Source of the DNA: Branchiostoma floridae
Lineage: Eukaryota; Chordata; Leptocardii; Amphioxiformes; Branchiostomatidae
Length of the DNA: 64,000 nt
Assembly: GCF_000003815.2 (NCBI RefSeq)
Contig: NC_049997.1
Location: 8,581,158 to 8,645,157, forward strand
Reading direction: 5' to 3'
Part shown: positions 669-22,306 of the stretch, one piece after another
How positions within the stretch are numbered: position 1 is the first letter of the stretch
How the letters are laid out: every line of letters begins with the position of its first letter
Position numbers and translations under genes: made by a program
The notes under the pieces: model-generated
The model's database searches: none
What the model was told of the DNA's origin: nothing
The model's input: the letters and a program-made list of their open reading frames with translations, nothing else

Positions 669-3473
669 CTACTTGCTCAGATACATGGTCATTGGAACAG
701 CTGCTGAGATGCTGAGAACGTACATGACAACACAAAGCCTGTCCAGGACCTTAGCCAGTAAGATGTAGTCGGACACCTTGTCCTCCTTCTCTATGATCTT
801 GGTAAGCTGCTCTCTCCGCTTAGTAATCGCCATAACCAGCTTCCCCATCTCAATACTTATTGCCTCCCTGGTCATCTCCTTCACACTGCAGATCAGCTCA
901 GAAAGACCACCAGGAGGCGTTGCCGGCTGGTTGGTCCTCTCGTTGCAATCACCGGGTCCTTCGCCGTTGACCACCGCTATGTCATCGGTTTGAAATGCGA
1001 AGATAGTCAGCTCAATAGCAGTGGGGTCATTCAGGTCAGCTTCATCAATACTTGCACGCTTCTCCTTTGTTAGATCTCCCAACAGCATCATCCTTGTTGA
1101 AGAAAAAAAAATTACGTCAAAAGTTTTCCCTACCGCGCAGTACATGCATGGATAGTCATCTATTGTTCGTTATGTGTAGGTCTTGATGTTCAGATAATGC
1201 TCTTTCGGGTGTTATTTACTGAGCGAAGAAAAATCCTGGCGTTCAACGTACCAACAAAGAAACTCTGACTAATTGAATATTGGTTGAAATATGTGTTCAC
1301 AGAAACGTAGGTGGAAATAAAGCAGAGGCCGTGTAAAATGATTCCTTTAAACAGACACCAATAATGTTTGAAGGAAAAATACATACTTGGCAAGGTAATG
1401 GAGAAAAATTATCTTCGCCGACGGAGACAGGCTGCCCTCCCGGTCGTGAATAACGATGATGGCAACGGTGAAAAAGGTGAACAGACCCATCAGGCCCATG
1501 CACACGATGATCAGCGTAGCTGTAACATTATACACGTAAAAGGTTACAGGTTGTTTCGAAACCGTCAGTTTACAACAAAGACAAGTCTTCTCGCAACAGT
1601 TATCAGAATGCAGAAAAAAGTGATATTCAACAACTTTTGACTACAAACGTTAACATCTTTTGCAAATGGTTTTCAAACAATGGTTGTCAAAACGATACAG
1701 TTTAGGTCATTACTAATTTACACTCACCGAAAAATGGCAAAGCCCCCTTGACAGGAAGAACGTCTGTGACAAATACAAGAGACACGACCACGGAGAGCAG
1801 AATGGTCACTCCGAACGAGACACGGTCTCCTCTGTCCAAGGGCATGATGAATGTGATGATCATCAAGACAATCAGGATGATGCAGGGCCCAATAGTAGTG
1901 GCGAGGTGGAACAGGGGGATCCTCTCCAGGTGAACAACAAAGCACGCTTTCCTGTTGTCTTTGGCGAAGATTTTATCCTTTCTGTACCATTCACCTTCGG
2001 TTGTGGCAATGGAAAAAGAGTTGCACTGGTCGTCTGTCTTGTTGCCTGTATGGCATCCTGGCAAAATACAAAACTTGTTGTGATGAATTCTTTTTAAAAA
2101 CATCAGACTATACACATGGTCAGTATTTTTATGCATACAACGTTTCCGCTGAAACTCATAGAAACATACGTTCAGGAATACATGTGAAAGCCTTACGCAT
2201 GGTTTGCTTGATTGCCGTGGACGCAGAAAAACAGATTTCGCATTCCACGTTGTCTGCAGGGAAGAAGAATGGGTCTGCATCACACACGGTGGTGGTCAGG
2301 GTTTCTACACTCCATTCTACCCGGCCATTGCTGCTCACTCGGACTGGTACTTCCTTTTGTAGACCATTGTATGTAGGGTCAGCACTGTAAAGTAACCATC
2401 AAATATGGCGGAGGTTTAAAATGGTTATAACAGCTACATATAGGAAATTGCCGTGATCATCAAGCAAATATTAATATTTCTTTTTGATTTAACAAATGTA
2501 GTGTAAGAGAAACAACAGCTTACTTCCTCTGTAGAGGCAGTGTCGGAGTCCAAATTATCTTGCCCGGAACGCTGAACGTCGGGATATCATCGTAGTACTT
2601 TGGATCCCAGCTCAGTCTTCTGTCTTGCCATGTCTTGAAAGAGAGAACAATTTGTTTTATAAAATACAAAACGTTAGTAGTAAATAAATTTCCTGGCAAA
2701 AATATGATTTGGATATTCTGTGAGCACAAGTCTTTCAAAGCCGTGTCAACTTACGAAATTGACGACAACAGACGCAACAAGTTGCTCCTTCTTTTCATCC
2801 TGCAAGTAAGAATCAGTGCATGAATATTTCAAACTGAGACATTTTAATTCCTTATTCTATTAAGTCAATGGTCTGAAATTAAGTTAAGTTTATTGCAAAT
2901 TCTTGCCCGTGGGCTAATTGCAGGTAACATGAGAGATTTAGACAAAGTAAAAAAAAAACACTATCAAAGGTGTCTACTCTAGTCTAAAACTAGTAAAAGC
3001 TAACTCTATAGGTCCTGGCTTATTGGGTTCGACTCCTTTTTCGAAGACAGTGGAAGACGAAAGATCCCACCTTTTCTATTATGTGTGGGTTTTGTGAAGA
3101 TAGAAGGAGAATTGTTTTCTTTTTGTCTTTTGTGAATGTTAAGAAGTTTTGATGGAATTTGGTGGCCTCTTCAAACAGCTCTTTTCTTTCGTGATCATAG
3201 AAAGAGCAGTTTGACATAAAATATGTTTCGTCTTCCACCATGTTTGACGTGCACTGTTTGCACGTTCTTTACATACAGGAAGCTTCTTATACCGTCCTCT
3301 CTCAATGTTACTGCAAAACTAATTTCATACCCAATGTGTAACATATTCATGCATACTCACCAAGTCGACAATGAGTTGCACAGATCCAGTGAAGTTGACG
3401 ATAACATTTTCAGGTGCAAGACTTGAACTATACAACTCAAGTAGCTCAGCTTGTAGCCGACGCTTATGGTTCA
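669..3473 (-). CDS. Nicotinic-type Cys-loop channel subunit (exons 3473-3361, 2799-2755, 2633-2524, 2384-2197, 2057-1728, 1519-1387, 1092-669)
   Basis: Seven exons splice in frame to about 447 residues. Counting from the first: N-terminal helix [29 protein letters not shown] (about 54-69), IIWTP (79-83), Cys-loop with 13 residues between C124 and C138, GEWYRK, and ERIPLF before TM1 (about 203-224, conserved Pro210). TM2 runs about 232-254, preceded by GDR (Asp at -1'), with Ser2', Thr6', Leu9', Asp20'. TM3 is about 264-285, then a long acidic cytosolic loop and TM4 ([13 protein letters not shown]). Exon lengths of 45 and 110 bp match the conserved early exons of vertebrate nicotinic receptor genes as I recall them. 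Cation selectivity is inferred from TM2. There is no vicinal Cys pair and no loop B Trp. Confidence 0.9.

Positions 3474-22306: not shown

What the first reader, a model, noticed from the sequence alone, without database searches (positions are those of the whole stretch)
669..22306. A nicotinic-type ligand-gated channel fused behind a very large mosaic ectodomain
Seen: a sushi exon (3892-3704) ends in phase 1 and the next exon (3473-3361) starts with two bases that complete a Val codon and lead straight into the N-terminal helix of a Cys-loop receptor. That exon has no Met or signal peptide. Upstream on the same strand a signal peptide and CUB, sushi, MAM, SRCR, YWTD, EGF, C-type lectin, LDLa, Frizzled CRD and kringle modules follow in order. 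Known: Cys-loop receptors normally consist of signal peptide, ligand-binding domain and four TMs only. I know of no described pentameric channel with this ectodomain. Inference: a surface receptor that may couple recognition of glycans, matrix or pathogens to ion flow, with up to five such ectodomains per channel.
Basis: partly seen in the sequence, partly recalled or inferred. Interest (0 to 1): 0.95.

Follow-up and report, generated by a model that had tools for sequence, protein, structure and literature searches.

The report
Nicotinic-type channels with giant recognition ectodomains
This lancelet-like genome carries dozens of related genes in which a nicotinic-receptor-type ion channel appears to be encoded in one piece with a string of adhesion and recognition modules (kringle, sushi and others), a protein layout recently stated not to be seen in eukaryotic channels of this kind; the copy in the window itself looks damaged or misassembled at two joints.

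Summary
The sushi-to-channel junction is real and is a family trait. Window-like M1-M2 exons occur at 57 loci (window included; capped search). All 57 have a sushi4-like exon upstream on the same strand; 56 have kringle, sushi, channel in that order (random kringle placement: mean 1.6, maximum 6). None of the 43 best Neur_chan_LBD hits has either upstream. Of 88 Fz-like exon hits, 86 lie upstream of such a channel. In the 18 loci read, sushi and first channel exon join in phase 1; two introns are only 98 and 124 bp. One paralogue is open from signal peptide through LDLa, Fz-like, kringle and sushi to M2. Eight loci share the order SRCR, YWTD, lectin, Fz-like, kringle, sushi, channel. M2 is nearly invariant and cation-type; the acetylcholine site looks degenerate. 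A 2022 paper calls such N-terminal domains unobserved in eukaryotic channels; mollusc gene models with extra domains and one listed lancelet protein are weaker precedents. No transcript evidence.

The parts
22230..22306 (-). first exon, signal-peptide-like [19 protein letters not shown]; donor 22230 (phase 2) fits CUB1, donor 22252 (phase 1) is the alternative
20468..21173 (-). CUB domain 1 (two exons)
   Evidence: Pfam CUB
20109..20294 (-). sushi 1
18784..19730 (-). MAM domain (three exons); 100-N gap just after it at 18562-18661
17139..18041 (-). CUB domain 2 (two exons)
16799..16984 (-). sushi 2 (apparent GC donor)
15552..16107 (-). CUB domain 3 (two exons)
15037..15222 (-). sushi 3 (apparent GC donor)
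10544..14609 (-). four SRCR domains, each split over two phase-1 exons
   Evidence: split form in relatives
7768..10077 (-). YWTD / LDL-receptor class B propeller (five exons)
7383..7490 (-). EGF-type module after the propeller
   Evidence: FXa_inhibition
6486..6878 (-). C-type lectin domain
6080..6178 (-). LDLa module
5521..5777 (-). Fz-like module, exon 1; 3' end lacks 2 nt against paralogues (frame break)
4891..5054 (-). Fz-like module, exon 2
4096..4376 (-). kringle exon with 100-N gap (4169-4268) and 1 extra nt near its 3' end against paralogues (frame break)
3704..3892 (-). sushi 4, membrane-proximal, phase 1-1
2197..3473 (-). Cys-loop ligand-binding domain, exons LBD1-LBD4 (3473-3361, 2799-2755, 2633-2524, 2384-2197); Cys-loop C-x13-C with FPAD
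1728..2057 (-). end of LBD, M1 and M2 pore
1387..1519 (-). M3
669..1092 (-). intracellular loop, M4 and stop codon

Best explanation
The window holds one member of a large gene family of this lancelet-like genome that encodes a single polypeptide: signal peptide, a variable set of recognition modules (CUB, sushi, MAM, SRCR, YWTD-EGF, C-type lectin), a stalk common to most members (LDLa, Fz-like, kringle, sushi), then a complete Cys-loop receptor subunit. Shown by sequence: module order, phase-1 exon joins, genome-wide linkage, a paralogue open from signal peptide to M2, purifying selection and a conserved cation-type M2. Inferred: subunits assemble as pentamers, the stalks project from the apex of the ligand-binding domain (where its N-terminal helix starts), and ligand or matrix binding to the outer modules, rather than acetylcholine at the degenerate orthosteric site, sets or modulates opening of a cation pore, as an N-terminal accessory domain is thought to modulate the bacterial channel DeCLIC. 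The exon-shuffling route was probably the phase-1 intron before the ligand-binding domain. The window copy itself carries two small indels, either assembly errors or recent damage.
For: 57 of 57 loci with a window-like M1-M2 exon (window included) have a sushi4-like exon upstream on the same strand within 30 kb, and 56 of 57 have kringle-sushi-channel order, with all 150 kringle rows and all 118 sushi rows used; 1000 random kringle placements gave mean 1.56, maximum 6. 0 of the 43 best Neur_chan_LBD rows have an upstream kringle or sushi4-like hit. 86 of 88 Fz-like exon hits lie upstream of a family channel, at 43 of 57 loci. Eight loci, window included, are collinear for SRCR-YWTD-CTL-Fz-kringle-sushi-LBD1-TM. 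18 of 18 junctions read have the phase-1 acceptor at LBD1 and a phase-1 donor at the sushi end; introns of 98 and 124 bp have no Met-hydrophobic ORF. The C14 paralogue has no stop from signal peptide to M2; with M3-M4 appended by hand, Pfam finds LDLa, Kringle, Sushi, Neur_chan_LBD and Neur_chan_memb above cut-off. M2: -1' D, 6' T and 9' L in 29 of 29 rows, 2' S in 28, 20' E/D in 28 (27 distinct loci). dN/dS about 0.28, window against C17a; pS>pN in 134 to 135 of 136 paralogue pairs for kringle, sushi and LBD1 segments. Loop A Tyr, loop B Trp and the loop C tip are changed or missing against alpha-4.
Against: No transcript or protein evidence. The window copy is out of frame at Fz1/Fz2 and kringle/sushi4. 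The Fz identity is sub-threshold and the PDB profile search found nothing. A crude scan finds a Met-started hydrophobic ORF in the sushi-LBD1 interval in 10 of 18 loci, though in the window none can splice to LBD1 as a signal peptide. 14 of 57 loci gave no Fz hit, and one had no kringle. Junctions were read in 17 of the 56 other loci only. 89 of 150 kringle rows have no family channel downstream: kringles are common in this genome. Prior work warns that lancelet domain combinations are often prediction errors. Gating by the ectodomain is inference only.
Confidence: 0.8

Rival explanations
1. Two adjacent genes: a secreted mosaic protein ending after kringle or sushi, and a separate Cys-loop receptor with its own signal peptide. 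The fusion is a reading error of the kind documented for lancelet gene models.
For: PMC4967905 documents a false lancelet fusion refuted by ESTs. In the window the kringle-sushi4 and Fz1-Fz2 joins are out of frame. Crude hydrophobic Met-ORFs lie in 10 of 18 sushi-LBD1 intervals.
Against: Kringle-sushi-channel linkage at 56 of 57 loci. Phase-1 donor and acceptor at 18 of 18 junctions read, 98 and 124 bp introns without a candidate start. No usable signal-peptide start at 3474-3703. The C14 paralogue is open from its signal peptide through M2. 86 of 88 Fz-like exon hits sit upstream of a channel.
Confidence: 0.07
2. The window copy is a recently inactivated pseudogene of a real fused family.
For: A 2-nt deficit at the end of Fz1 and a 1-nt excess near the end of the kringle exon relative to paralogues.
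Against: dN/dS of the window copy against C17a (0.28) matches that between C17a and C17b (0.29). All eight exons from sushi4 to the stop and 30 exons upstream of the first break are open. One indel lies near an N gap, where assembly error is plausible.
Confidence: 0.4
3. The ectodomain is made with the channel subunit but shed or used only for trafficking, clustering or anchoring to matrix; the channel is opened by an ordinary small ligand or is a non-gating subunit.
For: Fz-like plus kringle recalls the layout of MuSK in fish, amphibians and birds (PMC6966886 passages) and of ROR (recalled), and MuSK works in AChR clustering. Module number differs between members: C14 has only LDLa-Fz-KR-sushi while the window has many more.
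Against: The agonist site is degenerate. Nothing here tests shedding or trafficking.
Confidence: 0.4

Closest known systems
Vertebrate-type nicotinic acetylcholine receptor subunits (alpha-4, muscle-type beta; also 5-HT3A)
   Same: Best PDB sequence matches over LBD and membrane domain (E 2.3e-34, 7.9e-34 and 7.9e-28); Cys-loop, cation-type M2
   Different: These have signal peptide, LBD and four TMs only (recalled, and PMC6896357 passages); they keep the agonist aromatic box, which is degenerate here
DeCLIC and other prokaryotic pLGICs with an N-terminal domain (PMC9897478, abstract and start of introduction seen)
   Same: Extra domain N-terminal to the pLGIC ligand-binding domain, thought to modulate the channel
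   Different: Prokaryotic, and one NTD rather than LDLa/Fz-like/kringle/sushi modules; that paper states such NTDs are not observed in any eukaryotic homologue
ROR and MuSK receptor tyrosine kinases
   Same: Fz-type CRD followed by a kringle; the family kringle matches ROR1/ROR2 kringles, though plasminogen, HGF and prothrombin kringles score higher
   Different: No kinase match here; effector is an ion channel; the Fz-like module is below the Pfam cut-off
[quoted passage not shown]
   Same: Eukaryotic Cys-loop genes predicted with extra domains in an expanded family
   Different: Nine models at most per species in its table, different domains named, no conserved stalk described in the passages seen
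Lancelet protein 269420_PRF0 with Neur_chan_memb and a novel architecture (PMC4967905 section 12; supplement not seen)
   Same: May be a member of this family in another lancelet
   Different: Named once, in a passage on possible prediction artefacts; its architecture is not given in the text seen

Membership tests
Cys-loop receptor / pLGIC | Neur_chan_LBD above Pfam cut-off | tested here: met
   101.6 bits against 26 (window part)
Cys-loop receptor / pLGIC | Neur_chan_memb with M1-M4 | tested here: met
   61.0 bits against 28.1 over profile 1-225 of 233 (window part)
Cys-loop receptor / pLGIC | 13-residue Cys-loop with FPxD | tested here: met
   [15 protein letters not shown] in LBD4
Cys-loop receptor / pLGIC | pentameric channel activity | not testable with these tools
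   needs expression and recording
nAChR with acetylcholine site | loop A Tyr, loop B Trp, loop C vicinal Cys pair (residue roles recalled) | tested here: not met
   alignment to alpha-4: loop A Tyr replaced, loop B Trp replaced, loop C tip gapped
nAChR-like cation pore | M2 with acidic -1', Ser 2', Leu 9', acidic 20' (roles recalled) | tested here: met
   29 rows, 27 distinct of 57 loci; selectivity itself not measured
ROR / MuSK RTK | Fz CRD plus kringle | tested here: inconclusive
   kringle met in C14 (56.4 bits against 34.3); Fz 22.7 and 20.4 bits against 32.1 in 2 of 3 members, none in the third
ROR / MuSK RTK | tyrosine kinase domain | tested here: not met
   the C14 protein from signal peptide to M4 holds five Pfam families at E up to 0.01, none a kinase
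pLGIC with N-terminal accessory domain (DeCLIC type) | extra folded domain fused before the LBD | tested here: met
   at gene-model level
pLGIC with N-terminal accessory domain (DeCLIC type) | homologous NTD | not tested
   no direct comparison made

The most novel reading that the evidence does not exclude
A chordate lineage built a family of at least 57 receptor-channel loci by exon shuffling: an LDLa-Fz-kringle-sushi stalk carries variable pattern-recognition modules on each subunit of a pentameric cation channel whose neurotransmitter site has decayed, so that extracellular recognition (matrix, glycans, microbes or Wnt-type ligands) is converted directly into ion flow, a form of ionotropic immune or adhesion receptor.
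Probability: 0.4. Interest if true: 0.95.

Novelty: new variant of a known kind. Interest (0 to 1): 0.87.

Why it matters
A 2022 structural paper states that N-terminal domains beyond the canonical pLGIC fold occur in several prokaryotic members and are not observed in any eukaryotic homologue (PMC9897478). Here dozens of loci in one animal genome carry such domains in a conserved order, with signs of purifying selection where tested and a conserved pore. If expressed, they would make a channel class in which adhesion or recognition modules act on an ion pore, and they would test how accessory domains modulate pLGIC gating. They also suggest a plain exon-shuffling route, because the intron before the ligand-binding domain is in phase 1, as are most module boundaries.

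Tried and rejected
Rejected: an independent start of the channel in the window at 3474-3703. Rejected: chance neighbourhood of kringle/sushi and channel. Considered: a 14-nt micro-exon at 4000-3987 that would bridge the kringle-sushi4 phases; not believed, because 16 of 17 paralogues end the kringle in phase 1. Considered: alternative Fz1/Fz2 splice sites (5517 with 5091, both phase 1); possible, but they drop a cysteine that the three paralogues compared keep. Fz identity by PDB profile: no match up to E 10. NCBIfam gave only LIC and LGIC_1 below their cut-offs. PMC6071037 was searched for channel and kringle terms without a hit. Other lancelet species, transcriptomes and the supplement of PMC4967905 were out of reach.

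How counts were made. The 57 M1-M2 loci are one row per locus out of the 100 matches (the other rows are further exons or duplicates of such loci); one search scored 94 of 476 candidates, so 57 is a lower bound. My first linkage counts used hand-picked parts of the lists (74 of 150 kringle rows, not strictly the best 74, and part of the sushi rows; then 126 of 150 kringle rows and 40 of the first 43 LBD rows). The 43 LBD rows are exon hits, so fewer than 43 genes; the kringle and sushi lists are themselves capped at the scored candidates. In one search I used the first 27 of 150 lectin rows, 19 first-half split-exon SRCR rows out of 153 matches, and 30 of the first 31 of 149 YWTD rows (one window row left out). 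These counts include the window's own rows: 1 lectin, 2 SRCR, 4 YWTD. The 88 Fz rows were all used. Module coordinates for the eight collinear loci were picked by me from the tables, one per module. The CUB-sushi result (150 of 2274 candidates scored) was read by eye. Junctions were read in 17 of 56 other loci, 14 of them chosen because LBD1 was matched and close to the kringle.

Full report
What was checked. The window is G000:C19:8581158-8645157 of a 513-Mb genome in 431 contigs. The gene lies on the minus strand from 22306 to 669. Exons were built from anchors, splice sites and phases; where several sites were possible I chose those that fit. From the first exon to the first Fz-like exon, 30 exons give one open frame, two of the donors being GC. 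From sushi4 to the stop codon, eight exons also give one open frame. In between, two joins fail. Fz1 ends in phase 0 while Fz2 begins in phase 2, and the kringle exon ends in phase 2 while sushi4 begins in phase 1. Comparison with three paralogues shows a 2-nt deficit at the first site and a 1-nt excess at the second, the latter about 65 nt from a 100-N gap (4169-4268).

Is the fusion real? Two adjacent genes would be the ordinary alternative, and a false fusion is documented in lancelet gene models (PMC4967905, section 12 read). I therefore asked whether the association recurs. With all listed kringle rows (150) and sushi rows (118), 57 of 57 have a sushi4-like exon upstream on the same strand within 30 kb, and 56 of 57 have kringle, sushi and channel in that order; 1000 random kringle placements gave a mean of 1.56 and a maximum of 6. 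Of the 39 best kringle rows, 38 have a family channel downstream; over all 150 rows it is 61, since kringles also occur in other genes. Of the 43 best Neur_chan_LBD rows of the same genome, 0 have an upstream kringle or sushi4-like hit. The Fz-like module is more telling still: of 88 exon hits, 86 lie upstream of a family channel, at 43 of 57 loci, and the other two belong to one locus (C5:4.747M) that also has kringle, sushi and LBD1 matches.

Junction anatomy. I read the kringle-sushi-LBD1 stretch of 17 paralogues and the window. LBD1 has a phase-1 acceptor in 18 of 18 and sushi a phase-1 donor in 18 of 18; for C17a the script picked an exonic GT and the right donor is. The kringle ends in phase 1 in 16 of 17 paralogues; L049 gave none, its kringle match being truncated, and the window gave none. 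In C17b and C14 the sushi-LBD1 intron is 98 and 124 bp, with no Met-started hydrophobic ORF; a crude scan finds such an ORF in 10 of 18 intervals, the window's among them. In the window, none of six ATGs between 3474 and 3703 can supply a signal peptide in frame. The C14 paralogue reads from MRGQLVIVVVTCCLLFVS through LDLa, Fz-like, kringle, sushi and LBD to the end of M2 without a stop. With its M3 and M4 parts appended by hand, Pfam recognises Ldl_recept_a, Kringle, Sushi, Neur_chan_LBD and Neur_chan_memb, all above cut-off. C17b reads open from a sushi1-type module through lectin, LDLa, Fz-like, kringle, sushi and LBD to M2, with one GC donor, and C17a from the second Fz-like exon to M2.

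The outer modules. Lectin, split-exon SRCR and YWTD exons of the window find close relatives upstream of the same channel loci (window rows included): lectin 15 of the first 27 rows, SRCR 18 of 19 split-exon rows at 8 loci, YWTD 16 of 30 rows at 11 loci. The remaining rows, many of the YWTD ones on C9 and C12, are not near family channels. Eight loci, window included, keep the order SRCR-YWTD-lectin-Fz-kringle-sushi-LBD1-TM. CUB-sushi blocks related to those of the window lie further upstream at several of these loci, among many related blocks elsewhere in the genome (read by eye). Some members are much shorter: in C14 I found only the four-module stalk. So there appears to be a common stalk and a variable outer part. 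Fourteen of the 57 loci gave no Fz hit; most of these are the more distant members on C230, C2, C11, C13, C18 and C19.

The channel. The PDB sequence search finds nAChR alpha-4 (E 2.3e-34), a muscle-type beta subunit, then 5-HT3A. M2 is almost invariant over 29 rows (27 distinct loci of the 57): Asp at -1', Thr at 6' and Leu at 9' in all, Ser at 2' in 28, Glu or Asp at 20' in 28. By established knowledge of the family this is a cation-type pore; selectivity was not measured. In the alignment to alpha-4 the loop A Tyr and loop B Trp are replaced and the tip of loop C is missing, so classical acetylcholine binding is unlikely (residue roles recalled). dN/dS between window and C17a is 0.28 pooled over ten exon segments, and 0.29 between C17a and C17b; pS exceeds pN in 134, 135 and 135 of 136 paralogue pairs for the first kringle segment, sushi and LBD1. 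The window copy has therefore not drifted for long, which favours assembly error or recent damage over an old pseudogene.

Fz identity. Pfam Fz reaches 22.7 and 20.4 bits in two of three members (cut-off 32.1) and nothing in the third; a three-sequence profile found no PDB chain. I call it Fz-like. The kringle is a good kringle; plasminogen, HGF and prothrombin kringles score above ROR kringles.

How it may work. Inference: the N-terminal helix of the ligand-binding domain starts at the apex of the extracellular part, so modules placed before it can project outward without blocking assembly, as in DeCLIC. Binding at the outer modules, or tension through the stalk, could bias a pore whose neurotransmitter site has decayed. 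A trafficking, clustering or shed-ectodomain role is about as likely; the Fz-kringle layout recalls MuSK, which acts in AChR clustering (PMC6966886, passages seen).

What is known. PMC9897478 (abstract and start of introduction) states that N-terminal domains occur in several prokaryotic members and are not observed in any eukaryotic homologue. PMC4795631 (passages) says association of the pLGIC architecture with other domains had been evidenced only at genome level. PMC6896357 (passages) reports mollusc nAChR models with extra domains such as dynamin or GAIN. PMC6354393 (passages) treats amphioxus nAChR genes; the passages seen mention no such modules. PMC10855680 (passages) reports SRCR expansion in Branchiostoma; the word channel does not occur in its main text. 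PMC4967905 names a lancelet protein with Neur_chan_memb and a novel architecture. My nine literature searches listed no paper that I recognised as describing this architecture; I judged most papers from the listing alone, and subscription journals are mostly not held.

Verdict. The architecture is well supported at family level, new as far as I could search, and a new variant of a known kind (Cys-loop receptor). The function is open. The specific window copy is interrupted as assembled.

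Noticed in passing
window 24191-24568 (+) onward: ORF with [50 protein letters not shown] resembles the start of a TTLL12-like gene (recalled, not searched), divergent from the mosaic gene.
   Followed up: no
G000 C5:24.39-24.72M, C7:22.7-23.0M, C9:6.1-6.8M and others: More than 20 rows match Neur_chan_LBD over about positions 45-120 in a single stretch, a different exon pattern from the window family: possibly a second large pLGIC group.
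   Followed up: no
G000 C9:23.4M, C9:25.2M, C9:1.1-1.8M, C12:19.4-19.7M: Clusters of YWTD-propeller exons related to the window's but not near family channel loci; possibly another receptor family sharing the propeller.
   Followed up: no
G000 C5:4746163-4750838: Locus with Fz-like, kringle, sushi4-like and LBD1 matches but no M1-M2 match listed: possibly truncated, divergent or not scored.
   Followed up: no
G000 C8:17.308M, C16:2.410M, C16:6.827M, C16:2.037M: Kringle matches stop at query residue 65 or 66 of 75 in these members, suggesting a shortened kringle end or another splice form.
   Followed up: no
window 18562-18661, 4169-4268, 52807-52906: Three N runs of exactly 100 bases: probably unsized assembly gaps, two of them inside the mosaic gene.
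   Followed up: partly
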